Of a DNA stretch of 64,000 bases, positions 31,572 through 61,400 are shown piece by piece (the first letter of the stretch is position 1; each line of letters starts with the position of its first letter). Origin of the DNA: Brachionus manjavacas (taxonomy: Eukaryota; Rotifera; Eurotatoria; Ploima; Brachionidae). The translations under genes and the position numbers were made by a program. The stretch is from positions 2,542,001-2,606,000 of the forward strand of contig JAHQIY010000006.1 in the NCBI GenBank assembly GCA_019054805.1, read 5' to 3'. The notes below the pieces were generated by a model. That model searched no databases. It saw only the letters and a program-made list of their open reading frames with translations, and was not told where the DNA came from.

Positions 31572-33342
31572 CTACCATTTAATGACAAGACCGTTTGTAT
31601 TTTTTTCAATTTCATGATAGTTCGTGTATAAATTCTTTTTTAATTTTTCTTCATCTTTACCAAGCCACACTGAGTCGTACAAGTTTTTAACAAATCTATT
31701 CTCATCAGGTATCTGATTCTTTACCGAGTTGTAAGTTATTTCAACTTTTTGCAAGAGGTCTTTGGAAAGACTGTTGGTTTGTTCGTCCCTAATTTGACCC
31801 CCACCATTCAAACATCCTAAAACTCAAAATTTAGTTTAGCAAAAAATATAAACCCGAGTGATACCAGAAGGACACGCCATTATTTCTATATAATGATAAG
31901 GACAATTTTTCTTCTTTATTTTCTGAACAATATTTTGAATATTCCTAAATCCATATGCAATTGCAAACTTAAGCTTGACTTCACCATTTATTTCCAAATT
32001 AACCTCTTTGAAATCTGAATTTCTCAATTGCTTATAAACTATCTGCTCACGTTTTAGATCATAATCAAACAAGCTCTTGGCTGAATTGACCAACACATGC
32101 TCCAAGTAACCTCCAGATCCCCCACCTAGATGATTGTAGACCAATTCTTGTTTCTCAAGTTCTTGCTTGACACTTGTCTGATCTTTATTCAAAGTAAATG
32201 GCAAATCTAAAGTTCCATCTTGCATCGAGCCTAAATCGATATTTTCTTTTTGAAATAAATTCTCAATTTCAACTTAGAAATTTTTTCTTTAGATAAAAAT
32301 TAAACTTAATTAGAAAAATTTATCACTTGTAGACAAAACACAGTCTACATCTTTGGACTGGTGAAATTCGTTGAAAAAATCTTTGCGTGATGATTCAAGC
32401 TTTTTGTCAAAGCATGGCATAATTGTGACATGATAGATCTTGTCAGGTGTTATATCAAAAACATTTTTGCACAAATAGTCCTTAACTAACGAGCCCATAA
32501 TTTGTTGAGGCGATTTGACAGCGCTAATGAATGGCAAGATGAATGAGCCATGCGTTTTTTCCGCGTAGCAGATCCAACCAGGACAGGAACTTGTTAGAAT
32601 GGGTAATTTGGCATCCGAAGAACCTTGCTCATTTTTCCTAAACCTCTCGACAAATTCTCTCTCGCTTTCAATTAGACTGAATTCACGTGAAAATGTCGTA
32701 TCGAAGACAAATTCGGCGCTGAAATAATTCTTGAAAAAACCGCACAACTTTTTGGTGCATGTGTTCAAATCAAGGTTATATCTTGCCGCTAAGGATGCCC
32801 GACTTTGGGGCGAAATTGAAACAACTATTCTTTTAACATGACAGAATTTGTCATCCTTAAAAAATAAAATTTTGTATCTATACAAAATTATTTTTTTCTT
32901 TTTTAATTTTTCAAATACCTGAATAAATTTTTTATTATTTTCAATGACTTTAATTAGCTCATCTGCACTCTGTTGGTTGATCAAGACTGTTTCTGCCGAG
33001 GTCACACATCCACTGCAAGCCAAACAATCGTCAAGGCTAATTTTTGCTTTTTGCACAGGAGGCTTTTGTTTTTCCTTGAGAGAAAAAAAAGCTGGAAATG
33101 ATCCATAATCTATTTATAACCAAGGAAAATATTCTTAAAGTATACCACTGAACCAGATTCGTCCGCTAATTCTATAACTCCCGCCTTTTTGGTAGGTCTT
33201 TTTTCCAGTTTAACAGGTTTGACACATTCCTTATCCAGATTAAATAAGAATGATCTCAAGAAAATACCTAAATTACCTGTCCGGGTCCTATAAAATCATC
33301 AAGATCATTTATTTGGATGATACCAGAAAATTTTGAACTCAT
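31572..33342 (-). CDS. CIAO3: Cytosolic iron-sulfur assembly component 3 (NARFL/IOP1/Nar1)
   Basis: Exons 33277-33342, 33146-33229, 32919-33074, 32327-32855, 31865-32272 and 31572-31816 give 495 aa (human 476). The protein is an [FeFe]-hydrogenase-like scaffold. The N-terminal cluster ligands are Cys24 (ECVKPV) and Cys67/70/73 (DDCLACSGC). The second-cluster ligands are Cys193 (SSCPGW), Cys250 (IMPCFDKK), Cys412 and Cys416 ([13 protein letters not shown]). All eight are present, so it should be active. Other family blocks are [43 protein letters not shown] and a C-terminal W (GLVIKW), the targeting-complex-recognition type of end. In the CIA pathway it links the early scaffold to the CIAO1-CIAO2B-MMS19 targeting complex. 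It is divergent from PRMT5, with 159 bp between the two starts. Confidence 0.96.
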
Positions 33343-33501: not shown

Positions 33502-36068
33502 ATGAGTTCGAATAATAAAACTGTGCGTTGTGCTCTAAGTGTGTCCAGCGTTCCTGATATCACAGAAGCCATTAACAATGCCATTGATAATAAATTTACT
33601 TATTTAATATGTCCTTTGGTTAATCCAAGACTCAAAAGGGAATATGTTGCCGATAATTTAAGACATCAACAATTGCCATTGACCAGAAGTGATCTAGACC
33701 TTACAGCTGAATGTAATTTTTTGAAATATTGTGAAATTTTTTAAATTTCTACAAAAAGGTTGGCAAAATTACGTGGTAGGAGCTGCACATCAATTTTATG
33801 ATTGTGATTCTGAAGATGAAATCATAAGAAATAATGGCATTTGTGTAAATGATGAAAATTTTTTTTTTATTAAAAACTTTATAAAAATTTCAGGGCTTAT
33901 CGGAGGAATTGAACATTGTGGCTCATTTGAATCTAACAAATTATCTAATTCCATTGCGTAGCGACAAAATTGAAAATTTTTCTCGAATTATAAACAACAT
34001 TTTGCTAAATAAACTTACAATGTTTAATGTAAATTGATCAATTTTTATAAGTTAAATCAAGCATTTATTTTTTTTGAAGGTTATCATTAGAGTTCCACTG
34101 CATTTGAACAATTTAGATATCGAAATAGAAAATTTGATTTCAAGATCAAATGAGGATGCACCGTGGTACTGGTGGAAAAAATTGAGAACTCTGTGCGAGG
34201 AAAACACGCGTTTAGGACTTGCCTTAGAGATGACTGATGATTTACCAGAAGATGAAAATGAAATAGAAAGATGGTACTCAGAGCCCATTCGAATGATAAT
34301 TATTCCGACTTCGCTTTTTTTAACTAATAAAAGCGGATTTCCTGTATTATCTAAAGCACATCAAAAATTTATAAATCAATTTCTTAAAGTATTTAAATCC
34401 AAATTTTAAATTGAAAAATTTTAAATTGTTAATTTAAAAGCTAGACATTGACTTTGTTATCGAAGGAGCCAACCGGCATACTGAAAGAGGAATGTCAAAA
34501 TATCAGGAATATTTAAATTATTTATTTAAAGTAATTTTTGTAAAAAAATTTTTATATAAAATTTAAAACAAGCTTATTTGAAGCAATTTCAGTCGAATAG
34601 TGTGGACAAAAAGACTCAATTTACAAAAGGATACGAAGATTGTCTTCAGAATCCATTACAACCGCTAATGGACAATTTAGAATCTCAAGTGTATGAGGTG
34701 TTTGAAAAGGATCCTATCAAATATTCCCAGTACCAAAAAGCCATAGCTCAAGCTTTGATCGATCGAGTCAGTGAGGAGGATAAAAAAACAAAAGAAATGT
34801 AAGATAGGAAAATTATTATTAAAGGAAAAATTTTAATTGATTCTTTTCAGAGTTATCATGGTTGTTGGAGCAGGAAGAGGTCCATTGGTAAAAATGGCTA
34901 TTCAAGCCGCACAAGAAACTGAGCGAAAAGTTAAATTATATGCCATAGAAAAAAACAAAAATGCTATTAATACGTAAGAAAAATTTAATTTATTCAGCTA
35001 ATCATTATTATCAAATAAATTTTTTTGTTTAGATTATTAAATTTGAAAAATACAGATTGGGATGATCGGATAACAGTGATCGCTAAAGATATGAGAGAAT
35101 GGGAACCTACGGAGAAAGCTGATATTTTAGTGAGCGAATTACTGGGTTCAGTTGGAGATAATGAACTTTCACCTGAGTGTCTCGACGGAGCTCAGAGATT
35201 ATTAAAAGGTATTTTCCAGTCACAAAAAAGTTTAAATTTAAATTTATTTTGTAAAGATGATGGAATAAGTGTGCCTTATAGGTATAGATCTTTCATTGCA
35301 CCTGTTCAATCTTACAAAGTCTACTCAGAAGTAAAACGGTGTAAAGAATATGAACACCCATATGAGGCACCATATGTCATTTTATTGAACAATCACTGCA
35401 GAATAGCTGATGAACAATTTCTTTTTGAGTTTACTCATCCAAATAGAGCAAGTAGGCTTAAAAGTTTTATTTTAAAGATTTTTTTTAATTTATAAAAAAG
35501 AAAAAATTGATAATAATCGATATGGCAAGCTTGAATTCAAGGCTAATTTTGATGCCACTTTGCACGGTTTTGCTGGATATTTTGATAGTCATTTGTACAA
35601 AGATGTTGATATTAGTAAGCAATATTTTCTGCCTCAACTCATTAACAGTAGTGGGGCATATTAATTTCGAGTCTCATAACCTCGTCAAGCTACACAAATC
35701 TTAAATTTTTTTTTTATTAAAAAACTGAATATCTCAAAAACATTTTTTAAGTAAATTTTCTTTATCTGAGTTAAAATTAATATGTTCAATACTAAAGTTT
35801 GGGGCACTTTAAAAGACATAAAATATTTATCTTAATTTTTAAACAAGGCATTACTCCATCAACTCATTCTCCTGGAATGTTTAGCTGGTTTCCAATGTTT
35901 TTTCCACTGAAAAATCCAATTCAAGTAAAACAAAATGACTTAATAACTGTTCACTTTTGGCGATGTGTGTCAAGCAAGCAAGTACACTATGAATGGTGTG
36001 TATCTTCACCAACTAATTCTGTAATCCATAATCCTAATGGAAGAACATATTGGATCGGATTACATTAG
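33502..36068 (+). CDS. PRMT5: Protein arginine N-methyltransferase 5
   Basis: Eleven exons: 33502-33712, 33759-33844, 33894-34028, 34080-34388, 34441-34530, 34593-34798, 34851-34973, 35033-35208, 35257-35451, 35501-35614, 35848-36068. They give 621 aa (human 637). Blocks in order: an N-terminal TIM barrel ([45 protein letters not shown]); [16 protein letters not shown], with the Phe (314) that sets symmetric dimethylation; the SAM-binding VVGAGRGPL; the double-E loop [15 protein letters not shown] (Glu422 and Glu431); and the C-terminal barrel ([23 protein letters not shown]). It works with MEP50/WDR77 to symmetrically dimethylate arginines on histones, Sm proteins and others. All key residues are present. 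The start of exon 34593 could instead be 34584, adding three residues in frame. Confidence 0.96.
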
Positions 36069-36098: not shown

Positions 36099-37245
36099 TA
36101 ATTATCAAGAAAAAAAATTAAAAAAAAAGAAAACATTCCTTTATTATTTAACGCGGAATTGAAGCCCGAAAAATCAGTATTAGTTCTTTAATTGAATTAA
36201 TTTTTTAGTATATTCTATCTTTATGTCCCGGTAAAAACCTTGCAGAACAAAGACCTTTTATTTCTTTATTTGTTTTTTTGCCTCTCTCTCTCTCTTGGTC
36301 TTTACTCTAAAAAATTAAGTTTTGAGTTTAAATTTATTAAAATTTTAAGAAAATTTTAAAAAAAGCGCTATGCTAGACCCCTTTTGGAGAATAAGGTAAA
36401 AAATTTCAATGTCCCCTATCAAGTCGATCCTTTGCGATTCCCCTTACTAAATCATCTCACACCTTGGAACTATTATCCTAGTAAATTTTCAAGCCACCAC
36501 AGTCTTTCAATCTTGATGCAATGACTCATTGATTCGATGTTCATTCTTGTAATGTGTCATCAGTTTTGCTTTCACTACACTGCTGCGTATCTTAAGCTTG
36601 GTTTTCTTGCTTTAAAAAAAAATTCAAAAATTTAATTCAAATTTTAGTTTTTAACCACACACTTTATTTTTTTTAATAATAAACTATTTTTAATTATTTA
36701 AATTAATATTAATTATTTCCCAAAAACTTGAACTTTTTTGCCTCTAATTTGATTTTTAATTTGGTATTTGAGTTTTAAAGCCGCGTCTAAACATGAAAAA
36801 GCTCATTTTTTTGCATGCGTCTCAAAGGGGCCACTTTTAACGATGTTCGATGGTCGCTTATGCTTGCACTTGAACATGAGAATCAAAAGTTATCCGGCTT
36901 TGCGATCTTGCAAGGGTTCACTCTAATAACAACCATTTTTTTTATCATTTTATAAGTTCAAGTGTCAATAAAAAAAGACAAAAAATTTAAATAGATATTT
37001 TTAAGTATTAATTACAAAAGGTTTCAGAAATTTATTTATTTGTTGGTCTCTTTTATTTTTTCTGATTTTAGACTTCAAAAATAGTTTGTCAAATGTAAAA
37101 TCAACAATTTACGGGAAAGTGAACAGAAGTATTTTGTTTTAAGAGTAAAAAAGGTGAATTTAAATTGTTTATTCTCAAATTATCTAGTTAATAATAATAG
37201 GCTACGACAGGTTTTATCCTGTAGAGCAAAACACTAGAGTCTCAC
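36099..37245. other. Intergenic, 1.1 kb, partly less AT-rich
   Basis: The stretches at about 36360-36600 and 36770-36930 are clearly less AT-rich than the surroundings but have no long open frame. They may be an old repeat or a non-coding transcript. A CT-rich microsatellite-like run lies at about 36280-36300. Confidence 0.4.
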
Positions 37246-37420
37246 TATGGTAGCTAAAACTATCTTTATCTCTTTTTTGTTGTGAGGACACCAAGCTGCT
37301 ATTGCATATTCTAAATGCGGACTTACAAATGTAACATAAAGTGATTTAAACGACTTTTTAGACAAAAACTTGAAAGCCTTGCTCAGCTGCCAAATAATTG
37401 AAAATAGCCTGATCACAATT
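37246..37420 (-). pseudogene. LINE reverse transcriptase scrap
   Basis: The minus-strand frame contains FKSLYVTFVSPHLEYAIAAW followed by CPHNKKEI. This has the form LYxxxVxPHLEYAxxxWxP of the region after the catalytic domain in many LINE reverse transcriptases. The frame stops soon after and no 3' tail is recognisable, so it is an old fragment. Confidence 0.55.
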
Positions 37421-37937
37421 GAAAACTGATCAAAATTTTTTTTTAACTTATTCGTGATTTTTAAAAAAATCAAGCTTAAAATAAATATTTCCTTTGTTTT
37501 TTTAATTTTCATTCAAAAATTTAGGAAATAAATTTCATTTAACCAGAATTTCAACATGATTAATTTGTTGGGATTTTAGTTTTTTCGCAAAAAATTGCCA
37601 AAAGGTAAAATAAATAATTTATCATGAAATTCGTTATCAAACACCTTCATTTTTAAACCATTTCTAGCAATTTAAAGTAAGCTTTTTATCGAAAAAGCGA
37701 ATTTATTTTAAAATAAAAAAAAATAATTCGCATTTAGATAAAAGAGTAAAAAAAGACGTTTGATTTATTTATTTATTTTATTAACAGATAAATAGAAAAA
37801 TTAAATAAATCACAAATTGATTAATGATAATTTTCTCTTTAAAAAAAAGTATCCAAAGACATTGAAATAAAATACTAATAAACCATTTTGTAACATTTTT
37901 GAAATTTCCTAATTTTTGATCAAATTATTAAAAGTGT

Positions 37938-38423
37938 CTATTTGCCATATTGGATATCCCATTGTTGCTTGCGACCAAATGTCATTTTTGGATTGAAAAA
38001 CTTCAAGCTGCTACGTTTGCCATACAAAGCGTCCAGGAATGCGTTTGGTTTCATTCCGCCTCGTTTTCCATAGCCAATATCCCATCTGGCCGTCTGTCTT
38101 CGGTAATCTCTGAAAGGCGAATCTTTTTTGTATCTCATGTCAAAGTTCTCTTCACTCTCTGCTCCGTCATCTCCCAAATTCGCTTCAATATAAGCCTCGT
38201 ACAAGTAGGGTAACATGGCTTTGAATCGTTGATCTAGCTTTATTAAACGCTCCATTTCTTCATTATTTTCGTAATTCTCATTACTATTTTCAACCAGCTG
38301 AGGCTTTATTAAATGTTCATCGGCATTACTTGCCGGTTGATTGGAGGCTTCCAGACCCTTGGGTATCAGCGCTATTATTCCTAAAATGACCAAAAAATAT
38401 TTTGTTTTCACCATTGAAGTCAT
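37938..38423 (-). CDS. Neuropeptide precursor yielding W-D-I-x-Y-amide peptides
   Basis: An intronless 161-aa precursor. The first real ATG is at 38423; a second Met follows three codons on. The signal peptide is about residues 1-26 (KTKYFLVILGIIALIPKGLEA). An acidic spacer follows, then a C-terminal peptide array cut by dibasic sites: DSPFRDY (101-107); QTARWDIGY-G-KR (110-121); GGMKPNAFLDALY-G-KR (122-137); SSLKFFNPKMTF-G-RK (138-152); QQWDIQY-G-K then stop (153-161). Glycine before each dibasic or terminal basic residue predicts four C-terminally amidated peptides, and two start with Gln that could become pyroglutamate. It would be processed by prohormone convertase, carboxypeptidase and the PHM/PAL amidating enzymes in secretory granules. 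I cannot assign it to a named peptide family. Overlapping AATAAA signals lie about 160 nt downstream (37763-37781). Confidence 0.88.
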   Translation of the reverse strand: MTSMVKTKYFLVILGIIALIPKGLEASNQPASNADEHLIKPQLVENSNENYENNEEMERLIKLDQRFKAMLPYLYEAYIEANLGDDGAESEENFDMRYKKDSPFRDYRRQTARWDIGYGKRGGMKPNAFLDALYGKRSSLKFFNPKMTFGRKQQWDIQYGK

Positions 38424-41400
38424 TTTTTTCAACAAATTGATCGAATTTAATTTAAATGTCTAAAATGAAATTAAAAAAATATTTAAATTTATATCATAAT
38501 TTAAATGTATTTAAAAATAAAAATGCTTTACACTATTCCCTAAAGATGATGACATATCAATCGAAAATCAATCATTTTCGGAAAAAAACTTGTTTTAAGT
38601 TAACTTTTATGGGAAAAAAGACTGCAACTTTAAATTATTTATATTGTTCTATGATGAAATGAAATTGACTTTTGAAAAGAACGTCAACCAATCAGTTCCT
38701 AATGCATGGGCTTATCAAATATTTTGTAGATTAGGTTTTATCAAAATGCTTCCGTTTGAATCAATTTTTATTTTCTAAAATTTATTTTGAAATCAGATAC
38801 GTCAACTTTTCTTTTTTAAAATCTTGCCAGCAACAATGTTAATCTTATCTTCAAATTTACCTAAAATGATTTATCAACTACCTTCGATTAATTTATGTCT
38901 TCCTTAAAAACAGAAATCGTATCTTAATTAACCAAAACAAATAGAATTTTAATTTCCCTTTTTAGTTTAAAACTTGTTATTTCTGATTTTAAAATTTCGC
39001 TTTTATTAAAAAAAGAGTCTCCATTTAGCAAGATTTGAACCTAATTTTTTTTAATCTTCCTAAATCTTTGGATAAAAATTTTATTTTTTTTTATTACTAA
39101 AAATCCAAAATTTCCAAGACTTGATTAAATTAATTATTTTCTATTAGTCTCCACCTAATTAACTTCTGTGCGTCTAAAATAAAATGATTTTCACAGTATC
39201 TAGCTATTCGATCAAAAATATTTTCCTATTGGAATTTCGAATTCATTTAGTGGATTTTGTCTCAATTGCGGAAAATCCTCCAAAATACTTGAAAATTAAA
39301 TAATTGTTTACAAGATTTGAATGAATTGGTTAGAAACTAAATTTATTATTTTTTCAACAATTATGACAAAATCCAATCGAGTGAGGAAGTTCCGATCAAA
39401 AAATCTATACCCTTTAAAATTCTATTTCCCAGACCGTTGAAAATAAGTGTTAATTTTAATCAGTCTTGTTTCTTATGCCAAAAGAGTGGATGGTATCGCG
39501 CAATTAAGGTCTTTGTTGAAAAAAATTCCATCCTTTTTTTTTTAAATAAACCTATCTAATTAGCCTTAATAAAGTAGCATACGTGATCAAAAATAGTCTT
39601 TGATTTTGCAACAGGAAGAATTAATAACAAAAAAAAATTCGCTTTACACTATTTTTGGTATCAAAATTAAATATCTCTTATTTAATCTTAAAAAATCAAA
39701 TCGGATTCCGAAAATTCCGATTTAAAATCAAACTAATTAGACTATTAATCCAATTGTATTTCCCTTAAGTCCACGCTTGTATAAATTATTAATTATTATT
39801 AATTAAGACTAATACTTACCTTAAATAAAGTTAATGAGGTAGTTTTTCCCTGACGCCCATCATCAAAAATTTTTCGATTAAAATTTTTCGATTAATGGAA
39901 TTTAAGTAAAGTTTTAAATTAAGCTCTCAAACAAAATTATTTCTGAATTTATAAAGCTCTTAATTAAAAATTTATTTTGTAATAATAATTTTTATTAACT
40001 CTAGCGAAAATATATTTTTCATTTCTAATCATCTAGAAAATTGATTGAAATTACACTGATCTTGATACAGAATTAATTTCAAAGCCCAAATTTCGAAACT
40101 AATTAGTAATACCTCTTAAATACAAAAAATATCCTTTTATTTTAATTATTTTTTTTTTTTAAATGGAGAGATTATTAAAAGAAAAAATAGTTACCATCAA
40201 AATCTTGGCATTATAAACTAAAGTAAAAAAATTCCGACTTGTAAAATAAAATTGAGTTTAATTCTTTTTCTAGCCTTTTAATAAATCATTAAACCCTATT
40301 AGATGATAAACACAAAATTCAGCTTTTTAATTAATTAAATCAAAAATTTGTAGTTAATTAAAAACTAATACCACTGATTAAAAAAAATGATTATTGAAAA
40401 TTTTTTAGACTTCATAAATCCTATAAGAATAAAACAATTATTAAATTAATAATTAAATAAGATATTACTGAATTTTTGAATGAAATTTTAAGTAATTGAA
40501 GATTATATTAGGACAAATAAAAAGGTACAGCATTAATTTATTTGAAATTTTAATGAATTGAAAAATTGTCAAAATTTTAATAAGCCCAAAATTTTTTATA
40601 ACTGTTAAATTTAATCAAAATATATTCAATTTAGAATCTAAATTTTTAGAAATCTAAATGAAAATTAGTTTTATCTGAAAGACGAATATTAAATATAAAA
40701 AAGTTCTTTAAAATCTTTATTTTAAAAGATTAGATATTTAATTAAAAGTTCGAGCTAATTCAAATCTCAATGGCACATTGCTAAAAATTTTTTAATCTAT
40801 TGAAACTTTACTATTTTAAACGCCTCTTAGCTTTTATATTATCTCAAAATTATATTCTAATTGATTTTATTCAGCCAAATTAAATCTTAATTAAATAAAC
40901 TCAAAAATTAATCCATAATCGCAATTAAAAAAAGGAAATTAAAACTTTAAAGTCTTATTAGTTCTGAAGGATTGAAAAAAAATTGCGTAATTTGTGTCTT
41001 ATTAATTAAACCACTCCATTCGAAATCTTTATTTATTTCAAGAATTAATTCATTTATTTTAAATAAATTTGGTAGATTCCTGATTATTTTTTTTGGATAA
41101 ATATAATCATCGATGATTTTTTTAAAGATTCTTTACAGCCAATTTATACAACTAAAAAAAATATAATTTTTTGATTAACTCTTTACTTAATCTTACTCTT
41201 CATGATCAATATTACAAACGCTACTTCATAGAATTAGTTTACAATTAAATTTCATAAATTTCAAATTTAGAGCTGTGGAAGATATTATTTTGTTATTTAA
41301 AATAGGCTGACAGAAATAATTTTAAATTAAATTTAAATTATATAAAAAAAGTTATTCGAAGACAATTTTTGAACCCAAGAATAAATTAATGAGTAGCAAT

Positions 41401-46413: not shown

Positions 46414-49400
46414 TTATTTATCTCTTCTCCATATTCGTACCGTTGCGTCCCTAAAAAAATAAACATAAAATTCAAAATCTTTTTTTCTAAGCCAGTCTTA
46501 CTCAGATCCTGTGAATACTAAATTATTATTGACTTTTATTGATATAATTGGGCACAAATGTGCCTTGAAGTCGGCAACTTTTTCAAATGTGTTTACATTC
46601 CAAAATTTTAAGCATCCATCTCGGGAACCACTCAATAGCAAATCATGCTTATTAGCATAGTTTTTTATATAATCTAATGAATGTATCCAATCTTTGTGAG
46701 CATTGTTCATTGACTTAAAATAAACAAAAATTTAATTGCCAGAAACAATAAAGATAACAATATTCTTACTTGTTTGCATTGAAAATCGTCCATGCTCCAT
46801 TTTTTAATGCACATATCTCTGGAGCAGCTAAATAACCAATTATCTATTCGACACAAAGACTGCACACCATCGTAGTGGGGAGGCGTTAGATGGTACTTTG
46901 GTGAAATGACTTTACCAGTATTTATATCATTATTCCCCGTATAAAAGCTATTAATTTCAAATATTTTAATGTAGTGATCTTTTGAGCCTGTAATTAGCAA
47001 GTTGTCGTCAACAAGCATGGTGGTAATGGATGATGAATGTCCTCCTGAGAGCTTTCCAATTGGCAAAAATTGTCTTAAATCCCATATTTTGACAGAACTA
47101 CCTGAAGCAGTGAATAAATTATAGCCATATTTGTCCAAAGAAATGTCATTAATGAGCTTTTCGCCAAATGGCATTTCATTTTGTAAGACTCTTGTGTTGG
47201 TTTTTATTTGACCAGTGGCCACAATATAGTCACCATCATTAGCCAGACCAGAAGAGCTTTAAAAAATTTTATTAAATTAATTTTGTTTTTCGAATAGAAT
47301 TCTTTACCATAGTGTTTTGACGCAGCGTTTGTTTGACTCTCTTAGATCCCAAACTTTTGCATAATAATTTGAGACTGTGAAACAAAGTTTTGTGTAGGGA
47401 CAGTATTTTATTTTAATAACATTATTTGTATGGCCACCAAGAGAAGATGTTTCTTGGCCTGTGGTCAAATCCCATACTTTAGCCGTGCTATCTTTGCTAC
47501 TAGTAAAAAATCTGTATTCGTAAGAATCGATTGATAAAATTGCTTTAGAGTGCCCTTCAGCTACATGAGTAAGCAAAATGGGCGATGATCTAAAACGAGA
47601 TGTATTGCCTGAATACGGTTTTATAACACCCCTAAAATTTAAAATATTTTTTAGATGCTTTAATTTTTATTTTTGGAATATTTTTTAAAAATTTTAGAAT
47701 ATTATTTTAAAGTTAATTAAGTTTTTTATTCTATTTTTTCTTTAATTTAACTGACATTTTTAATTTAATTTTAAATTTTAAGCTGAAAATTAATCGAAAT
47801 TTAAATTTAACAAATTAAATACTTTTTAATTGTCTATTTGTTTATGTTCCAGAAAACCTCAGACAGCTTAGTTTTAAAATCAGTCTTTCTTTACTAAGCG
47901 ATTACTAGAAAGTTCGGATGAAATTAAACTCTTATAAGCTTATAGCTTAATACATTGTTAAGGGCTTGAATATTTGTTTAAAAGCTTTAATTTAAGTTAT
48001 TATTATTTTAAATATTTTTATGTTCAATTATCTTTTTTTGTTATTTTTATCAAAATAAAGAGAAATAACTTAAGGATTCATTACTGAATATTTTTATTTC
48101 CATACCAAGCTAATTTTTTGTTTTAATTTTTTTTTTAATAATTTAAAAAAAATATTATTCAAAAAATAAATTAATTGTTTAATTTTTTGTTAATTTTGTA
48201 CTAAGATAATTATTTTATAACAAATTTTCTAAAATTAAATTTTTTTTTTGAAACTGTTAATTTTGTATTAAGATAATTATTTTATAACAAATTTTCTAAA
48301 ATTAAATTTTTTTTTTGAAACTGTTAATTTTTGTTGAATTGAAAAAATTTAGTCTTCATTTAATTTATTTCATATATCACCAAACCTGGCGCAATCTTTG
48401 AATTAAATCAAATCACATTAAATGCAAGCCTTGGGCAATTCATAAATTTTTCAAAAATTTCTTATTAAAAAGAAAATGAAAAAGTATAAATTGAATATTT
48501 TGATTTATTATTAATTTTTTAAAATATGTGTCGAAATTTTTTATCTTTACCTCATAAATTATTCAATGCAAATAAAAAATACCAAACTCCGCTAAGGGGC
48601 CTTAGCAGCAAATACTGCGAGCTTGCCTCTTTTAGACGAAATTGTTATTATTGTTTTTTCAATATTTAATTTTGTTATCTTTCCAACAAAAAAATCGAAA
48701 GTCTAATCAAAAAATATTATTTTTTCAAAGAACTTTCCTCAATCGGAAGTAAAATTTATATTAAAAAAAATTTAAATTTTTTTTAATCTGATGAACTTTA
48801 AAAATTTATACTTTAGTTTTGTTCAAATGAAATAAAGATTTCCAAAATATTAAGTTTGAAATTAAATAATTTTTGCTTTTTAACTTAAAATAAAACAGCT
48901 TACTGTTCTGGTTTTGGAGATTGTTTGGTTTCACTTGTTAGTCTATTAAAAACATTATCATCACGAGAAGACATTCTTTTGTAATTTGGCGACCCTGGCG
49001 GTGACATGGACATGACACTATCTTTAGAATTGTGCCTCGAGATCGACGATCTAGTCATCCGAGAGCTATTACGGTCCACTGGCTGAACAATAACCGACTT
49101 GGACATTGGAATGCTAGAGCAGTCTGTGATAGATTTTTTAGAATCAACAAGCTCAGGTATTTTCGTATAAGATTTAGAGTCTATTCGACTAGATTGTTGA
49201 ATCAAACCAGGCACTGGTGACATAACTTTGATAGTTTGTGATGTTTTGATATTTATTTCGGTTGAAGCATTGGAAGTGGATGTGGACACAAATAAGAGGT
49301 CTTGTGGTCCGCTGGTAATCACCTGGCGAGCTTTGTAAGAACTGTCCAATTGACCACTTGAATTGTGATTGTTCGAAGATACTGGTGATATCAAGTTTTC

Positions 49401-52400
49401 GTAGGATTTGAGTTGATTTGTGTCCTGCTCTACCATTCGAGTTATTTCCTCATCTTCCTCGGACTCACTTGACGAATCGTCCATTATGGGTGCTAGTATA
49501 ATTTCATCTATTTCAAAGTTGTCATTGCACTCGTTCAACAAATTTAGGTTATTGTTTGTAGGCAACGGCTTGCAGCTTTCACTATTGGCCAAAATTTGCT
49601 TAGCCAGCTCTTCACTTATCTGGCCAGATTGAATTATTTGCTGGACTAAATTTTGCTGTACATTAAAATCCTTTTCCAACTGGTTCAGCTCATACTCTAG
49701 TTCATTATTTAGATATTCTTTCTGAGCCGCCAAAACTCCTTTATTTAAGGCTAAATTTAAAAATTTTCTAATCATAAACTTGGCTTCGTCAATTGAGCCG
49801 ATGGTCAAGACTAAATTTTCCAAAGAATAGTAGTCGGTGCCATCTTTAGCCTCGTCCAATTGAATAATATTGGTCTGGCATTCAGCTATTTGATCCTGGA
49901 GATACTCAATATTTGATTTCATTATGTCAATTTGTTCCTTTATTTCTTCCAGTTTGTTTGGCTCAATGCCCGACTTGGAGTTGATGGCATCGGTACTGGT
50001 CGTGCTAGAACCAGTACTATTAGTACTCAAACAGTTCAAATTAGTCATATTCGATTCCTGAATCAAAGCTTTTTCATAGCGCTTTAACAAGCGATTCAAT
50101 TTACGGCTAATTCGTTCACGTTGTTCTAAAAAGCGCTCCATTTCGCGTTCTATCAAACTTATGGTTTGTTTTTTCACAACAATTGCGTTTATCTATTTTA
50201 AAATAAAAAATTAAAAAAAAAGTTTTTTCTTTATTTGTGAAAAATAAGATATTTAATAAAAATTACAAAATCATTTATTTTGGTCCATTTTATTTGATAA
50301 GTAGCAGTTCTTTTGCTCATAAATGAGCTTTGAGTATGTTTTCGAGTAGTTGAGGTCTGGGACCGGGTTACTTCCGAGTCGACCGATTGACTTATTCTGG
50401 TACTTGGTGGCCTCTCGGACTGAATCCTGTTGGAGTTGAATTTTCTCAATGCTTGGATTTGTTCTTGTTTCCGCTTCAAAACAATGTCTCTGCACCGTTT
50501 CTCGGCCTCTAGTGATTTTATTTGATTGTCTTTTTTTAGATGGTCCCGTTTTAGAATGGCGATTTCTCTCATGCGCCGCTGCTCGTCCTGCTTGCTCTTC
50601 TGGGTCTCATCTCTCAATTGATTCATTAATTTAACCTTTAACTTTTTCATATCGACGATTTCTTTACGTAATTGTTGCAATTGTTTTTCGCTCTCTAGAG
50701 CATTTTTTATCATTTGTTGATTCTTAGACTTTATCTGTTCATACTTGTTCAAATCGGACTGAAGACTTTTTATTTTCAGCTCGTATTCAAGCTTAATTTT
50801 TTTTATTTGTTCATCGTTTCGGCTGTCAGCACTTTGCTTGGCTAAATAGAAAAATATTAGACAAGGTGGATGCTATTGATGCGTGAATAATAGAAACTAT
50901 TAAGGAACAATTAAAATTAATGTAGAATAAATAAATGTAGTCCAAGTAGTTTAAGCAAATGCTCTAGGCCACTGTCTTCAAACAAAATGCTAAACCAATT
51001 TGATGTTGGGTTAAAATTCGGACAAATTTACCGAGGACAAATTGATTAAATAACTTTCAAATATTTGGGTTAGCCGAGACTAGGCCACATTTAATTAAAT
51101 TTTAATTAAATTTCGAGCAAACTTTTAATATAGGACACAATTTGGAAGCTTCCGGTCAAAATTTAGTATAAAATCAAATCAAATAGTCTTAAGCTTATCT
51201 TTTTCTAAGAAAAATTTTAATTTTAGAGTAAATTTTATCTTTTTGAAGGATAAAAGTAATGATTAAATGTGACCGAAAATTAAAATCGCTATTGTGGACA
51301 TGTGGGTTATAATTTTTAGATAATTTTTAGATTCTTCCTGAAAAAGTATTTTCAAAATCAACTCTAACCTATAAACAAAAAAAACACCTAATGAATCGAT
51401 ATCATTTGAAAATTTAAAAAGCAAAATCCATAAAAAAAAGAAACCGTAATCAAAGGACATCTTTGGGCTGCTACATAAACTCTATTTTCATTAATCATAA
51501 ATATCTTAATTTCGCTTTTTAATGTGGAATTAAGTGTTCATAAAATAGAATCAACATAAAGTTTATTTTTTCGAAAATTTGTTTAATTCAAACTATTTTA
51601 TGAGTTCAAAAAAAATTCTCGTACTCGAAATTTTTGTTTATTTTACGAAAAACTGTTTTTTTTAAAGAATTAAAAAATATTCTTATTATGCATTTAAAAT
51701 TTAAAGAAAGAAAATTCAAGTTAGGCAAATAATTATTTTTCATTAAAAATTTAAAAAAAATAAAGAATACCTAAACATTTGAAATAAATTATTTTTAGAC
51801 TTTTCAAGAATCTAAATTTTTTCTCCGTACAAAAGCATTACCAATATTTTTTTTTACCAAGAAAATGTGAGATTTTGCTAAGAAATGCTTGAAAACTTAG
51901 AATTTTGAAAAAATCAACATTTTTGGAAAACAATTTTTTCTAAATGGAATTTATAATGTTGACTTAGCTAATATGCTTCGTCTAGAACGATTCAAGCAAA
52001 TAAGAGTCTTATATTCAGTCAGCACATAAAGCCGTGTGATGACTTTTAGTTGTTATAAAATTTCCAAATATTAAGTTTAATTTCGAAATTTTTTAAATAA
52101 TTAGAATATTTTTTGAACTCACGCGAAAACCTAAATGAGAAAAATTTAAATTTAAAACTAAAATGAAATATTGACATAAATAAAATTTTCATCTTCTGCT
52201 AAGTTTTATAAAAATCTTAAATAATCAAAAATTAAACATCTTTTGAACTTTTTTATAGATTGAAACAATAATTATAAAGAAAAGATTTTATTCCAAGACA
52301 TTTTCAAGCTTTTGATCTTTAATCAAATACTTGACCAGGAAATCAGAAAATAACATAGAAGTCTGTCAAAAACCAATTTCCGACCTCTATGATTTTAATT

Positions 52401-55400
52401 TAAAATTAATTTTATGTTAATTTTGTGATTAGTTCATTTACCTTATTAACAAAATCTATATTTTTCATTCATTTTTTCAATAAAATAATATATTTTATAA
52501 AATTTGATACAATTGACATTTGCTTATTATTTTTGGTTGAAAATGTGTTTAGAATATTCAAAGATATTTAAATCGTTACTTTAATTAAACTCAAAATGGT
52601 TTTAAAATTTACTTATCTAATTTAATTTAATTAAAATGGTTTTTATTCATTAGAGCAGAATCAAAAGAATAACTAAAAATTTTAAAATATTCAAAATAAT
52701 TCTGTCATAATTCATTTATCTTCATTATCCTTAGATTTTTTGATAATGAAGATAAATTATCGTCAGATGATAAAACAATTTTTTCCTCCAATGCCTTAAA
52801 TAAAGCTTCAAAGCAAATAAAAAATACTCAAAAAGTGTACCATGACATCATTAACTTCTATTTTATCATTTTTAGAGTTTGCAAAGCCATTTTTGCCGCT
52901 TTTAAAAAAGAAGACAGCGATATTATCATAAAGAATCTACTTGACTAACACACTATCAAAACTTTTTAACTTACCCATTTTTCATTCCAACATACTTTAC
53001 TTATTCAAACACTTTTTAATCCAAATAAATATTAATTTTAAGTTAATTTCAAGAAAATATTTAAAAGATCTAACTCATTTTTTTTTAAATAGACTCGATG
53101 AATTCAATCTTTTACAAATTTTTTTTTTTGACCACTACACTTGAGTTTGTTAACGAAATCAGTAGATTCTGGAAAGAATCTTATTTCCAACAAATGACCA
53201 CGCATTTTTAATTTAAAAGAAATATTTAAAATTGTAATGAGTAGCTTCAAGATCAATTTTAAACTCGTTTCTGACTTTAAAAAGGAAAGAATATTTATTC
53301 TCTTGTTTAAAAAATTCCTATTTCGAAAACTTTTTGGCAAATTGTTTGCACTTCTATCGGCTATCGAAAAAATTTTCAGAAGAAAGACTTTAATCAGAGA
53401 TTTTAATCAGATTTGAGTATGTTATTAAGGTAATTGGTATGCCAATAATGCAAATATGGTGGGATGAATGATGGGTATTGTGAAAAATTTTGATAGTTCA
53501 TTAAAAAGTTTTATCGGTGGAATAATTGAGTGAAGCGTCATTTCTTCATGTATAAAAACATGATCCGATTATTTTAAAATTATAAAAAATCTGAATAAAA
53601 TATCAGGTTGATTTTTTAAAAATTAAAAAAAAAACAATCTCACCTTAAATCAATTTTTTATTTTTATTTAATTATTTTAGTCTTTTCCGGAATCTTAATG
53701 TATTTATTTTCATCGGAATCAAGGAGTTGTTATATGAACATAATTTTTAATTGTAACACTATTTACAAGACAAAATGTATATTCTATGATTAAGTTAAAA
53801 AAAATTCAAAAAAGCATTAAATTTTTTAGATACTGCATCACAGCTTGGGTTAAATCATTAGCAAAATTTTTTGCATTGATATCCCATACCATTATTAAAT
53901 TCTGTCCACAATATATTACATATTTTGGTATGTTAAAAATATTTGGTAAATATTTTAGGCAGAAGAGTATTTTAATGATGCAGGAATAATGAAATTATTT
54001 TAGTATTCCAGCTAGTCAGACCCTTCAAAAAGGCAAAACATCAAGACAGAGAAAATTTCCTCGTCAACAGAAAAGCAAATTTATGGAAGCCTTGGCAAGA
54101 ATTATTTTTGAATGCAGTCAGAATTTTAAATAAAATTTTGACAGCTCACCTTATTTAGTCACTATTACCTCAAATTTATTTATTTTCTACAAAAAATAAA
54201 AACAATATACAACTTACTCATATTTGCTATGACACGATCTCTTTCGTCTTCAATTTGTTTAATTCGGTCATGTAAAAGGGACATTTTTTCCTCGTATTGA
54301 ACTCTAAGGACCTCTAGATTTTTAGAGTTATTTTCCAACTCGTCAATGAGTCGTTTTTTTATATCAATTTTAAGTATAATATTATTTAAATTTTTTTCTA
54401 TCAATTTGCACGGTTCACTTTTGTCGCTTGATTCCGGATCATCATTCTCATTCAAATCCGTATACAACTGAATCAAATCGTTCAGATTCTCGTCTTTTTC
54501 GTCCTCTTCGTCCTTGTTAACCTGAGCACTCGCAATATCCTGATCTGAATTCAGTGAATTTTCTAGTTTGAACTTGCTTTCTAATTGCTTAAGCCGCGCT
54601 AGATCAGACTCGATATCTTTTTTGGCTTCGTCTATCAATTTTTTGTTACTGACCGCAGTTAAGTCAATCGATTGAAAAAAATTATTTGAATATGTTTCTT
54701 AAAAAAAATAAAATTTTTAAATTTTTCATCAGCTTTAATATAAAATTTGAATCCCTTGTATGTGTTTAATCCACTTCTCATCAGCAGCTAAATGGCTATG
54801 AAAAAGGACTCTTTCTTTTTGATTACGTAAAGCAAAAATTGTGAATAGGAATCATAAATTTTTAAGTCTTTTTAATTGTAAAGACTTATTTAAGCTGAAA
54901 AAAAGATTTATTAGTGGCTCGCGTTTGAAGCTTTATACAACACGGTTCGCCCTTTCATAAGTCTCTATCTAGGAAGCCCCAAAATCAAAGGTAAATATTT
55001 AGGAAAAATCCCTAGGTGTGCAGATGTTTGAACACAGAGTTAGCCTCTAAGCTAATTTTTAAAAAGAGCCAAAATTAATTAAAGGTAGTTCACCCTTTGG
55101 ATGTGAAATTTATTAAGCAAGAAAAGCTTAAATTTTTTTTTCGTTAAAAATTCAATTAAAAATTCAAATTCGTTTCGTTAAAATTCGTTTCGTTAAAAGA
55201 TTTTTTGTTCCAAAAACGGGGGCCTGAGCGCTCGGAAACTTGGATCATTTTCATGCAATTTCCTTACGGCAATCTCTTAATTGACTTTCTTAAAAGCAAA
55301 CCCGAGATTTTCGTTGATAAAATAATTTTTTTTTCAAAATTTAAATTTATTTCTAATTTAGGAAAAAATTAAAAAAAAAAGGTTTACAATAAACATAGCT

Positions 55401-58400
55401 TGATTTGATTACACTTTATGTAATGGAATATTAAACGATTTGAATAGAAAACTAAACAATTTAAAGTAACATACAACCCAAATGAAAACAAATAAAAAAA
55501 ATGGAAATTTAAATTTAAAAATTGAGCTGAGAAACGTAATAACAAATTCTTGAAGTAAAGTATTTGTAAGAGCTTGATTTTCTCGTTGAAATTTAACTCT
55601 AAAATTGTCACTCGATTCTTTGATTTTAAAATACCAGATTACATGATCGATTCGGATCTTAAGGGTCAATTTTGTTGTAACTTGAGCTACCAACTTAGAA
55701 ATTCAAGTGCAATTTTTGCAGCAATAAAACAATTTTTTTTCCTAATTAAAGAAAAAAAACTCATTTGCGGAAAACTTTATGCCAAGACGCGGTCTAAATT
55801 ATTTGAGGTCAAGTGATGGTCATTTAAAAAATAAAAACGTCTTTAAAGCTTACTTTTTCTAAAGCAAAATTAAGCAAATAATCTATTCGTATTAAATTAA
55901 GTTAAACTAAAATCGATCAAGCTTGTCAATCTCAAGTGCATAAAATTATCTTTTCCAACAAAAATATAGATTTTCTGTGTTTTTAGAAGAATAAATTAAA
56001 CATGGTATATTTGCCACGATAAAAGATCTATCCTAGTTGACTAATGCCTCAATTATCAAGTTAATCTATTTCTATCATAAAAATTTGTATGATAAAATTG
56101 ATATTTCTTTACTTTGTCACGATTCAAACTCAACAGAGATTTAAAATTTGATTTAGCACTGAATCAAGTAAATTTGTAAATATTTTCCAAATTTGAAAAA
56201 AAATTTAAATTATTTTAGATGCTTGGCCGCTAAATAAAGAGTGAGCACTAATTTGACTTTGTATTGTGACTTGGATGAACTCTTTGGGTTTTTAAGTTCT
56301 ATCTTTTGTTGTTGTAAATAATTGACTCGATCTTTTAGAATAGTTAAAAGATTTTGCGTTTAAAACCACATTAAGTCATTATTTAAATCGTAGAATTTGT
56401 ATCTTGATTGCTTTGATTTAGATTGCATCTATTTATTTTAATTAAAATACAAATTTTTACTTTGAAATTTAAAATTAATGACTTAATTTTATTCAAAATA
56501 CAAAATCTTTTTACTATTCTATAAAAGATCGAGTCAATAATTTAAAACAAAAAAACAAGATAGAAAACATGAATCCTTAGAGTTCGTCCAAGTCACAAAA
56601 CAAAGTCAAATTAGTGCCCAAAGCACTAATTAAAACACTAGAATATTTGAGTTGTCTAGACTTTTTATTCAAATGCGGAAACAAAATTTCGTATTTTCCC
56701 GATTATCTTTTACTAGCACCATTTTAAATCTTATTTGTTTGACTTAATGGAAATTTAAATCGATTTACAATTTATATCAATTATTAATAGCTAAATTAAT
56801 TAAGGCTAGTTTTAATTTTTTACAAAAAAATTAATTCTTTTTTATTAAGTCTTTTTCTCGGAGGGTTGCTAAAAAAACAATTGCTCAATTTTTAATAAAA
56901 GAAAAATGAATTCATAAAAATTCTTGAAAGAACTGTGAAAATTATATAAACAAATTAAAAAATGTATTTTTAAATTTCCAATTTTTAAAAAATTTGAAGT
57001 TTAAAAATCTATTTTTTAAAAGACTCATTTTTGCAGGTCAATTAAAAAAAATATTAAACAGTTCTAAATTTTTTTTGAGTATATGAAGAAGTCATTGCTA
57101 AGGCTTTGGAAAGACCATAAAAAAACACGACTTTTAAACAATCTATTAGCTTTACAACAGAAAAACTTTATTTAAAATCCATATTCTGTTCTTGGTCAGG
57201 GATCAAAACCTTGGAATTTAATTAATGATACCCTTTTTGTTTTAATTGTAAGAAAAAGGGAAAAAATTGCTCAAAACAATCAAATAATGAACTTTTAATT
57301 AATTTTTTTAAGAAAATATTAAATAAGGTGCTTTAAGAGTGCGATTAAAAAAAAAATTCTGAATTTTTTCTCATCTGACTTATCTAGAAGAAAAAATGAT
57401 AAAATTTTAAAATCTTTGAAATTAGTTTGAATTCTATTTGTGATTTATAAGCGGCTTATAAATCATTCATACAAACAAAATGGCTTGTTTCTCACTAAAA
57501 TATTTGTTTAGTGGTAATTAATTCAAATTTTAAGCTTTTCATAAATTAATATTTGAAATTTATTTGACTAAAAATATGAAAAATGCTATTCGGGAATTTC
57601 CGATCAGACTAATTTGTGTCAGCCGAGGCATAAAGGTGTAGTCTGGCCGTTTATCGAAAATCAATTTATAAAATAGACTTTAGTTTGATTAAGAAATTTG
57701 TTTCTCGGTATCCATGGTTAATCCACAGGATAATGGGTGAACAACTTTGAAATTGATTTGTACTGAAACAAATTCTCAAGTTAAAGAGTTTTGAAGAAAA
57801 TATACTCTAAGAAAAAGCCATTTAAATATTCATAAATTTCAATGGAATCTAATGAAAAATTTTAAATTACCTTCTTCGTCTTGTTTTAGCTTAAGTGAGT
57901 ATGACGGGTTGGAATTGTGTTTGGACTGCTGCAGTTGTAATTGTTTACAAATCGATTCGGATTCTTGTAATTTACACCTTAAAAAAAATTAATTTTTTCA
58001 AAACTAAGATTTGTATAAGCTCTCTTGAAAAAGACTTGAATTCTTATGATATTTGCAAAAATGTGATTTAAAGGTTTTTTTGTTTTAATTAATTGGATTT
58101 CGCATCGCCGAGAACCCTTTAAAAAGTTCACTGGAAGTGACGTTAACAAAAAAAACCTTAATTATCATTTATCATTTTTGGTCAAAATAGTCTCTCCAAG
58201 TCAAATATTGACCAAAATTGTTTTGCTTAAAGAAAATTTTATAATCGATTTTTTTTACTAGGATTTCTTGACCACAACTAATCAACAAATCTAAATGACA
58301 CTAAGACGACCTAGCGGGAAATATTTTTAAAATTAATTAGAAAACAAACTTTATAAACATGAAAAATTTTTATTAAAATATCAAAATAAAACCTTTTGGA

Positions 58401-61400
58401 ATACTTCTTAATTTAAATTTGTAAAGGCTTTATTGACATAAATTAAAAAAAAAAAAAAGAGTTAAATTTTTATTCATTTTCTAAATCTGGTTTCAATATT
58501 TTGTTAATCTTTGTTCTATCTCATTCAAAATTCGGAAGAACTTTTTCTCACTGAAAAATCAGCAACAAAAAAATACTTTTTAATAACTATTTGTTTATTT
58601 TTTTATTATCAATTTCAGCTTAAAAATTAAAGGAGTTTTGTTATTTCTAATTTTAAAGCCAAATTTTCGAATACTAAACAAAACCAAGTTTTGACTATGC
58701 ATTCACAATTTTATTCGATTATGATACAAAAATAGTTTAAAATTGAAGATCGATAAAATGATAATAAACAAGTAATTTTAATTTGCCTTAAGTATTTAAC
58801 AATAAATAATTAAGAAAAATTCATTAGTTTGTATAAATTTTACTTTATGTTTTTTTTTTTTAAATTAAAATTAAAACTAATTAATCAAACAGTCAAAATA
58901 AGTTTAACTTTAATTAGAATTAAATGCCTTTAATTCCTTTTTAATTATGCATATTTTAGCTCAAATTAAATAACTTGTCAAAATTAATTTTTTCTTAGGT
59001 TCGGAGTAAGCTTTTTAAAAAATTTCTCTTTTTTTTTTAAACAAATTTAGATTAAAAAATTATTAGTGAATGTAAGAAAAAAGAAAAAAGAAATTCAAAG
59101 GAAAATTGATTAATTAAAAAATCACTAATTTTTTTGTGAAAACTTTGATTAATAAATACTAACAAGAATACTTGAGCAAATCTATCATTATTTTACTTTG
59201 ATTAATTATCAGCAGATTAATTATATTATTACTAGTTTTGTTTGTAATTCTACTAAATCAAGAATCAAGAGAATATCAATGTAGCATAATTATTGCTCTG
59301 GAGGTGCTTTAAAAAAAATTTATTTTTTTAAGTTGACAAAAAATTTGTTGAATCTAAACTTTCTTTGATGATTGCACGGCATAAAAAATTTTGAAAAATA
59401 AAATGTTGTTAGCTGCATAAATATTACAAAGGTTGGGTATACATTTTAAAAACATTTTTTCGGCTTTAAATTACAGAAAAATATTTTAATCATTTTGGAA
59501 ATTGCTTTTACTCAATTCCTCTAAACTTCACTCTTCCTCTAAAAAAATTTTCAAAAAATATTGAATAACAAAAATTTTTAAGTGACTTTTAAGATGAATA
59601 AAATTTTATTTTAATCAAAATTTATCATGATAATTAAAGCCAATCTTGTAAATTGAAATGTTTTGTCATTAAAACTTAAAAGCTTTGAACTGAAATTTTT
59701 TTTAAAAATTTTATGTATAAAATTCATAATCCAAATTTTTGTTTTTTCTTTATCGGAATTTCTTTAATTTTAACTTTTACTTCTCCTTAAATTAATTCAT
59801 CTTCTTTATCTCAATAAATGAATAAAATCAATGTAATCATCGAGAAAATTAATTTTTTAAAAATATTTTGAAATTTCCAAACTAATTTGGCTATTTTACA
59901 CATAATCCTAAATAATCACTAAACTGGATTAGATCCTTTGAGTCTAAAATTAAAATATAAAGTCATTTATCTTCTTTTAATTTGATTTCAAAAAAATTCG
60001 AAATCATGTATCTTTTTTTTTAAATATTTAATTTCTAGAGAAAATAATGATCAACTCAATAATTAAATTTAACGAATTTTTTTACGTAATCAAAGTCTGC
60101 TTAATTACTTTTTTACATAATCATAAAAAATTTACTAAAAAGAAAAATAATTAAGATTACTAGGTTAATCGGTGAGATATTTAATTAAGGGGCATCATTA
60201 AAAGAGGCAAAAATTAATAAATAATTACTTGAGCTCCTCAATTGTGGTTATATAATCTGAAATTTGCTTCCATTCAAAAAAGTTATCTTTTTCATCACGG
60301 TCATCATCATTATCATCATTATCGGCATATTTTTGTCTAAAACCATTTAATTTTTTAGCCAAACGTTGATTGTTGAACTCAAGGTCACTATTTTTATTCC
60401 GGGAAGTTTCTATAGTTTCATTCATAGCCTTAATCCTCATGCGCATCGACTGGTTCTCTTTTAGTAATAAACTATTCTCTTGCTTGAGCTCGTTAATTAC
60501 ATTGAGCAATTCTATGTCTTTTGAATCGGAATTAATTCCGAAACCGTTGGCAATGGAGGAACTACAAGACGCTATAGGAGTAATTGTGATGGTAGATGTG
60601 GTTCTAGACGAGGAAATTGAGTTGCTAGTCTCCGAATGCGGAAAAATCGGCTTGTTCATTGCTCTAGATTTATACTGCATCAGCTCATAATTTAAACGCT
60701 CTATTTCAGCTTTCAACTGAGCTATTTGCTTGCTGGTTTTGTCCTGATTGACAAAAACCTTATTTTTGATGTTACGGGCCCGATTGGCGTACCTCAAGGT
60801 GTTCAGAGTTTCCATAAAATCTCGATCTGAAGGCGAAATGCATGCTATCATCAGAGTGCGGCTATTTCCGCCTAAAGAGTCTTGAAGAAGACGGGTTAGC
60901 TTAGAATCTCTATATGGAACATGACAGCCTCTTTTTTCCCTATCACCTAAAGCACTTATCACATTTCCCAAAGCCAACTGATAATTTAAAAATTAAGCAA
61001 AAGTTTTTATTATTTAAACAAAAAAAATTGACTCACCAGTCCTCGGTTGATGCATATGCCTTCTTTAGCTCGATGTCCTGTTGCTCCTGTTCGCTTTAAG
61101 CGCTCCGAACCGGCCAAATCGACGAAATGAAATTTGGCATTTAGGGTTTCTAGCTCATTTTCAGCAGAGTCTGTTTTCATAAAGCGGTACTGTTTTAGGT
61201 GAATTGTAAATATTGCATGAGACCGACTTGACTGAAGGTTCATGTTAGTCGCTCCAGTAGTACGAATTCTAGCTCCTGTTTTTAGCATTTCTAAAGTTTC
61301 CTGAGTAGACCGAACTTCTCGGTTCGAACAACCATGTACATTTATGCCACCATACTGATCCTCATGTATTTCTATTTTTGATTTAATGCTCTTGTTTAAA

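What the first reader, a model, noticed from the sequence alone, without database searches (positions are those of the whole stretch)
37938..38423. Unassigned precursor for four amidated peptides, two ending WDIxY-amide
The array (QTARWDIGY, GGMKPNAFLDALY, SSLKFFNPKMTF, QQWDIQY, each followed by Gly and basic residues) has all the marks of a real neuropeptide gene, yet the ending W-D-I-x-Y-amide does not match the families I can name (FMRFamide, MIP/allatostatin-B, RYamide, NPLP1, kinins). The last peptide ends on Gly-Lys directly before the stop. The gene is intronless, compact and flanked by long non-coding DNA.
Basis: partly seen in the sequence, partly recalled or inferred. Interest (0 to 1): 0.7.

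Follow-up and report, generated by a model that had tools for sequence, protein, structure and literature searches.

The report
Unassigned rotifer neuropeptide precursor gene
A small rotifer gene looks like the precursor of four short signalling peptides of nerve or gland cells, two of them sharing an ending (W-D-I-x-Y-amide) that I could not place in a known peptide family.

Summary
On the minus strand (38423 to 37938) lies a single-copy 161-residue frame: signal peptide, acidic spacer, then QTARWDIGY-GKR, GGMKPNAFLDALY-GKR, SSLKFFNPKMTF-GRK and QQWDIQY-GK-stop. Its GC is 40%; flanks are 18-26%. A WDIxYG-basic pattern hits the 114 Mb assembly twice, both times here. The organism is a Brachionus rotifer, most likely B. 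manjavacas: its published mate-recognition genes with three and five 87-residue repeats are found. The genome has an amidating-enzyme (PHM) domain, 7B2, convertase domains and peptide-type GPCRs. Best reading: a neuropeptide precursor giving four peptides with amidated aromatic ends, two probably pyroglutamylated, acting on GPCRs. The peptides fit none of the families tested, and eight text searches (listings partly capped) showed no report. Relatives in other rotifers, expression, peptides and receptor were not testable. A new member of a known kind, of moderate interest. Two points to amend: the gene is on the minus strand, which the finding does not say, and 'intronless' is shown only for the coding part.

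The parts
37938..38423 (-). Coding sequence of the precursor, 161 aa plus TAG stop, one exon
   Evidence: open frame, GC contrast, one match in the assembly
38346..38423 (-). Signal peptide, residues 1-26, likely cut LEA|SNQ
   Evidence: hydropathy peak 3.44 over the 11 residues from residue 10; cut site read by eye with the -3/-1 rule; no signal-peptide program was run; coordinates
38130..38345 (-). Acidic spacer, residues 27-98, ending at Lys-Lys
   Evidence: read directly
38103..38123 (-). DSPFRDY between KK and RR, no amide donor, possible linker peptide
38070..38096 (-). Peptide 1 QTARWDIGY-amide, N-terminal Gln (pyroglutamate possible); Gly-Lys-Arg follows at 38061-38069
38022..38060 (-). 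Peptide 2 GGMKPNAFLDALY-amide; Gly-Lys-Arg follows at 38013-38021
37977..38012 (-). Peptide 3 SSLKFFNPKMTF-amide; Gly-Arg-Lys follows at 37968-37976
37947..37967 (-). Peptide 4 QQWDIQY-amide, N-terminal Gln; Gly-Lys-stop at 37938-37946
38460..38470 (-). 3' splice-site-like TTTCATTTTAG, 36 bases before the ATG: possible 5'-UTR intron end or trans-splice acceptor
   Evidence: sequence and place; function inferred
37764..37782 (-). Cluster of four AATAAA, the first 155 bases after the stop, possible poly(A) signal
   Evidence: places; function inferred, in AT-rich background

Best explanation
The gene encodes a preproneuropeptide of a monogonont rotifer (Brachionus plicatilis complex, probably B. 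manjavacas). Shown: the frame, a hydrophobic N-terminus, ordered dibasic and Gly-basic sites, one copy, and domains of processing enzymes in the same genome. Inferred: the protein enters the secretory pathway; a furin/PC-type convertase (PC2, given its chaperone 7B2) cuts at RR, KR, KR and RK; a carboxypeptidase trims the basic residues; PHM/PAM turns the exposed Gly into a C-terminal amide; and glutaminyl cyclase closes the N-terminal Gln of peptides 1 and 4. The products are pQTARWDIGYa, GGMKPNAFLDALYa, SSLKFFNPKMTFa and pQQWDIQYa. All four end in an amidated aromatic residue, so the likeliest receptors are rhodopsin-type GPCRs of the protostome group activated mostly by peptides with amidated aromatic ends. 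Peptides 1 and 4 would share one receptor through W-D-I-x-Y-amide.
For: Sequence and anatomy. GC contrast and chance control. Motif confined to this gene, one copy. PHM domain whose 13 PDB matches at E <= 1e-5 are all PAM (L006). 7B2. Seven convertase P-domain matches, the best nearest to furin. Rhodopsin-type GPCRs: 29 matches, two examined, best PDB matches the orexin and TRH receptors; GPR139 is among the lower matches of the second. Receptor group activated by amidated aromatic C-termini: PMC8557429, section 7. The two WDIxY copies differ only silently at their shared residues.
Against: No transcript, peptide or receptor pairing. No relative in another species could be looked for in a eukaryote collection; the viral and prokaryote collections gave none. 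Peptides 2 and 3 do not share the motif, so only two of four show internal repetition. 2 of 200 Markov windows had a frame this long. The PHM match was compared for one exon; PAL, carboxypeptidase and glutaminyl cyclase were not searched for. Receptor choice is by analogy: neither receptor examined is nearest to GPR139.
Confidence: 0.82

Rival explanations
1. It is a strongly diverged rotifer orthologue of a known spiralian family (luqin/RYamide, MIP/allatostatin B, FMRFamide-like, NKY or FCAP) whose motif has changed beyond recognition.
For: FMRFamide, RYamide and FCAP-related precursors are reported from rotifers (PMC6425005, passages). C-terminal Tyr-amide is shared with RYamide and NKY, and Trp plus an aromatic amide with MIP in a loose sense.
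Against: 0 of 4 peptides has an RY- or RF-amide, an N-terminal Trp with a Trp-amide, or Lys and Tyr at its two ends, and none is 11 residues long as rotifer FCAP-related peptides are. No Pfam match.
Confidence: 0.2
2. A secreted multi-peptide precursor that is not neuronal: gland, mucus or defence peptides processed by the same enzymes.
For: Signal peptide and dibasic sites are not specific to neurons; expression is unknown.
Against: Short, cysteine-free, amidated, aromatic-ended peptides in tandem are the neuropeptide layout (established knowledge).
Confidence: 0.1
3. A chance open frame or decayed gene.
For: 2 of 200 Markov windows had a frame at least this long.
Against: GC contrast, hydrophobic N-terminus and four ordered amidation sites together; intact frame.
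Confidence: 0.03

Closest known systems
Multi-peptide amidated preproneuropeptides (general kind)
   Same: Signal peptide, spacer, tandem short peptides split by dibasic sites, Gly amide donors, last peptide ending Gly-Lys-stop
   Different: Peptide endings WDIxY-amide, ALY-amide and MTF-amide match no family tested
MIP / allatostatin B
   Same: Trp inside short amidated peptides with an aromatic end
   Different: MIP has an N-terminal Trp and a C-terminal Trp-amide (PMC6425005); here the ending is Tyr-amide and Trp is fifth from the end
Luqin / RYamide
   Same: C-terminal Tyr-amide in three of four peptides
   Different: No Arg before the Tyr in any of the four
NKY
   Same: C-terminal Tyr
   Different: NKY has Lys at the N-terminal end and family-specific central blocks (PMC6425005); not seen here
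Rotifer FCAP-related peptides
   Same: Multi-copy precursor reported from rotifers (Rotaria)
   Different: FCAP-related: eight or nine copies of 11 residues (PMC6425005); here four peptides of 9, 13, 12 and 7 residues

Membership tests
Amidated neuropeptide precursor | N-terminal signal peptide | tested here: met
   hydropathy; no dedicated predictor
Amidated neuropeptide precursor | Tandem short peptides bounded by dibasic sites with a Gly amide donor | tested here: met
   rare in Markov windows
Amidated neuropeptide precursor | Processing enzymes in the genome | tested here: met
   (7B2, PHM domain, convertase P-domain); PAL, carboxypeptidase and glutaminyl cyclase not searched for
Amidated neuropeptide precursor | Expression in neurons or neuroendocrine cells; mature amidated peptides | not testable with these tools
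   no transcript or peptide data
MIP / allatostatin B | N-terminal Trp and C-terminal Trp-amide | tested here: not met
   0 of 4 peptides; definition
Luqin / RYamide / RFamide | C-terminal R-Y/F-amide | tested here: not met
   0 of 4 peptides; group described
Tachykinin (protostome) | F-X-G-X-R-amide | tested here: not met
   0 of 4 peptides; definition from the start of the PMC6880623 abstract in the listing
NKY | Lys at the N-terminal end, Tyr at the C-terminal end, family core | tested here: not met
   0 of 4 peptides; definition
Rotifer FCAP-related | Many copies of 11 residues | tested here: not met
   the sequence motif itself is in a supplement that was not read
W/Y/Famide-activated GPCR ligands | Activates a receptor of the MIP / RGWamide / myosuppressin / FMRFamide-1 group | not testable with these tools
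   only aromatic amide ends seen; no assay, no receptor tree

The most novel reading that the evidence does not exclude
WDIxY-amides are a neuropeptide family of their own, restricted to rotifers or gnathiferans, signalling through a dedicated member of the protostome W/Y/Famide receptor expansion; it would be one of few peptide systems defined in this phylum.
Probability: 0.45. Interest if true: 0.5.

Novelty: new member of a known kind. Interest (0 to 1): 0.38.

Why it matters
A 2018 review lists Rotifera among phyla whose neuropeptide signalling had yet to be explored (PMC5818035, passage). Brachionus is a small, culturable model in which RNAi by dsRNA transfection has been used (PMC2746195, passages). 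A defined amidated peptide set gives masses, synthetic ligands and a knock-down target, and helps to place lineage-specific peptides in spiralian neuropeptide evolution.

Tried and rejected
Bdelloid spliced-leader sequence, recalled from memory, as a taxon test: 0 hits in the assembly; not informative, since I could not check the letters or whether monogononts carry it.

COX1 search for a mitochondrial barcode: the single match lies in an uninterrupted 667-aa frame under the bacterial/standard code on contig C21, which looks bacterial, so it was not used.

Assembly size and contig count looked for in papers (passages and listings): none named this assembly. One gives 24.95-31.14% GC for monogonont assemblies (PMC11954553), which fits the window's 27%.

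Relatives in the viral and prokaryote collections: 1 and 21 pattern stretches, none confirmed, as expected for an animal gene.

Looser fixed pattern, W-D-[I/V]-x-[Y/F]-G followed by two codons that include Lys and Arg: 4 hits in the assembly, control 0. One is this gene's first copy. The other three (L054, L055, L057) are WDIIFG-KN, WDV-stop-FG and WDILFG-RN in stop-to-stop frames of 83, 7 and 86 residues without an amidation array. Rejected as paralogues. The last copy here (GK-stop) cannot match that pattern.

Pfam PF10324 as a marker for the W/Y/Famide receptor group: 29 matches, at least two of them in one gene and one with stops. Of the two examined, one is nearest to the orexin and one to the TRH receptor, with GPR139 lower in the second list. 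The model is not specific, and no receptor was assigned.

Letter hits in papers: one search gave 2 papers, both unrelated by title; one search gave 3, of which one passage was read (FMTFamide, apparently a misprint of FMRFamide, in PMC6465311) and two are unrelated by title.

Full report
WHAT IS THERE. The stretch 37938-38423 is a 161-codon open frame on the minus strand, ATG at 38423 and TAG ending at 37938; the stretch read forward is broken by stops. The protein is MTSMVKTKYFLVILGIIALIPKGLEA | SNQ... followed by an acidic spacer to KK, a heptapeptide DSPFRDY to RR, then QTARWDIGY-GKR, GGMKPNAFLDALY-GKR, SSLKFFNPKMTF-GRK, QQWDIQY-GK-stop.

IS IT MORE THAN CHANCE. GC is 40% in the frame against 22% and 18% in the 300 bases upstream and downstream, and 23% and 26% in the 2 kb upstream and downstream. 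Of 200 Markov windows with the same dinucleotide make-up, 2 had an ATG frame of 161 aa or more, and one frame of 80 aa or more in all 200 carried two or more amidation sites; in the real window this is the only ATG frame of 40 aa or more with at least two, and it has four. The precursor is found once in the 114 Mb assembly, its C-terminal part once even at E up to 10 (only the best candidates are scored). The fixed pattern for W-D-I-x-Y-G plus Lys, Arg or a few other codons gives two hits, both in this gene, with 1 hit for the backwards control. A looser fixed pattern gives 4 hits; 3 are elsewhere, in short frames without an array. The two WDIxY copies share W, D, I, Y, G and K; two of those six codons differ, both silently. 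This is weak but consistent evidence that the peptide, not the DNA, is held constant.

ORGANISM. The window lies in a 114 Mb, 61-contig assembly with no named record; window GC is 27%, within the 24.95-31.14% of monogonont assemblies (PMC11954553, passages). The published primer MMRBF for the mate-recognition genes MMR-B of Brachionus manjavacas (PMC2746195, Table 1, section 7 read) has three hits with up to 2 mismatches, one exact and two with one mismatch, on contig C7, and none for the backwards control. The exact site lies in a 283-aa frame with three repeats 87 residues apart starting at residue 27; the reverse primer matches beside it with one mismatch. The paper gives MMR-B3 as a 16-codon signal, 10 codons, two motifs of 87 and one of 83 (passages), which sums to 283. 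The second site lies in a 457-aa frame with five such repeats, as described for MMR-B5. So this is a rotifer of the Brachionus plicatilis complex, most likely B. manjavacas; a sister species cannot be excluded.

SURROUNDINGS. Downstream lie PRMT5 exons on the plus strand (34056-36065) and an Fe-hydrogenase-like gene on the minus strand (32313-33113). A short frame at 37237-37512 resembles, from recall, the end of a retrotransposon reverse transcriptase, but has no Pfam match. Upstream, 12 of 12 frames of 55 codons or more between 38456 and 46657 have no Pfam match (listed; scanned). Then come minus-strand WD40 frames, other long frames and a kinesin motor (46501-61678), probably one KIF21-like gene (the gene name is my inference). 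A 3' splice-site-like TTTCATTTTAG ends 36 bases before the ATG, exactly where the stop-to-stop frame begins. The coding part has no intron, but the transcript may.

MACHINERY. The assembly holds a PHM domain whose 13 PDB matches at E <= 1e-5 are all PAM (L006, best 1.3e-24). Of 13 copper-monooxygenase matches four were compared with the PDB: L006 as said, L005 and L009 nearest to dopamine beta-hydroxylase, L011 no match. There is one match to 7B2, the PC2 chaperone (E 9.6e-29), and seven proprotein-convertase P-domain matches, of which the best was compared and is nearest to furin. A rhodopsin-type GPCR model has 29 matches, of which two were examined: one nearest to the orexin receptor, one to the TRH receptor. 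PAL, carboxypeptidase and glutaminyl cyclase were not searched for.

HOW IT MOST LIKELY WORKS. Secretion, dibasic cleavage, trimming, amidation and, for peptides 1 and 4, N-terminal pyroglutamate would give four amidated peptides with aromatic ends. [quoted passage not shown] myomodulins and proctolin are the stated exceptions (PMC8557429, section 7 read). I place the receptor there by analogy, at about even odds. Peptides 2 and 3 may have separate receptors. No step after the sequence itself is shown.

COMPARISON WITH THE KNOWN. No Pfam or NCBIfam match at E <= 1; in the PDB two FliS chains at E 0.22 and 0.24, judged chance. None of the four peptides meets the ending of MIP, RYamide/luqin/RFamide, protostome tachykinin or NKY, and none has the 11-residue length of the rotifer FCAP-related peptides (definitions and the listing). 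Other families (allatostatin A, kinins, allatotropin, NPLP1 and more) were weighed only from recall. Letter searches of 5.39 million open papers for the endings found no paper on such a peptide. Six phrases of the type 'rotifer neuropeptide' found none. Broader searches, whose listings I saw in full for (13 of 13) and in part for (30 of 99; 20 of 474; 25 of 8,882; 20 of 76), listed a rotifer APGW/AKH precursor paper (PMC10730642, passages) and a mollusc survey that includes three Rotaria species (PMC6425005, passages), but none that by its listing reports these peptides. Supplementary lists and most subscription papers were not readable, so 'unreported' is only as wide as these searches.

VERDICT. 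An intact, well-formed gene for an unassigned set of amidated peptides in a rotifer: a new member of a known kind. It is not categorically new, since other phyla have lineage-specific peptide families (examples in PMC8557429, passages). Interest 0.38.

Noticed in passing
L014, L015, L016 (G000:C7:5017989-5124088): MMR-B mate-recognition genes: frames with three repeats (283 aa) and five repeats (457 aa), as published, and a third frame with at least six repeats that runs off the locus; the 2009 paper reports two MMR-B genes.
   Followed up: partly
L004 (G000:C21:120555-121901): The only COX1 match lies in an uninterrupted 667-aa frame under the bacterial/standard code, suggesting that contig C21 (1.2 Mb) is bacterial and that the mitochondrial genome is not in the assembly.
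   Followed up: no
window 37237-37512, minus strand: Short frame resembling (recalled) the end of a LINE-type reverse transcriptase, about 430 bases from the precursor's stop; no Pfam match.
   Followed up: partly
window 13545-14685, minus strand: Two overlapping frames with a DDE_1 domain and a Psq helix-turn-helix domain: a pogo/jerky-like transposase broken across frames.
   Followed up: partly
L005 (G000:C17:1828402) and L009: Copper-monooxygenase domains nearest to dopamine beta-hydroxylase, a hint of catecholamine or tyramine hydroxylase-like enzymes.
   Followed up: partly
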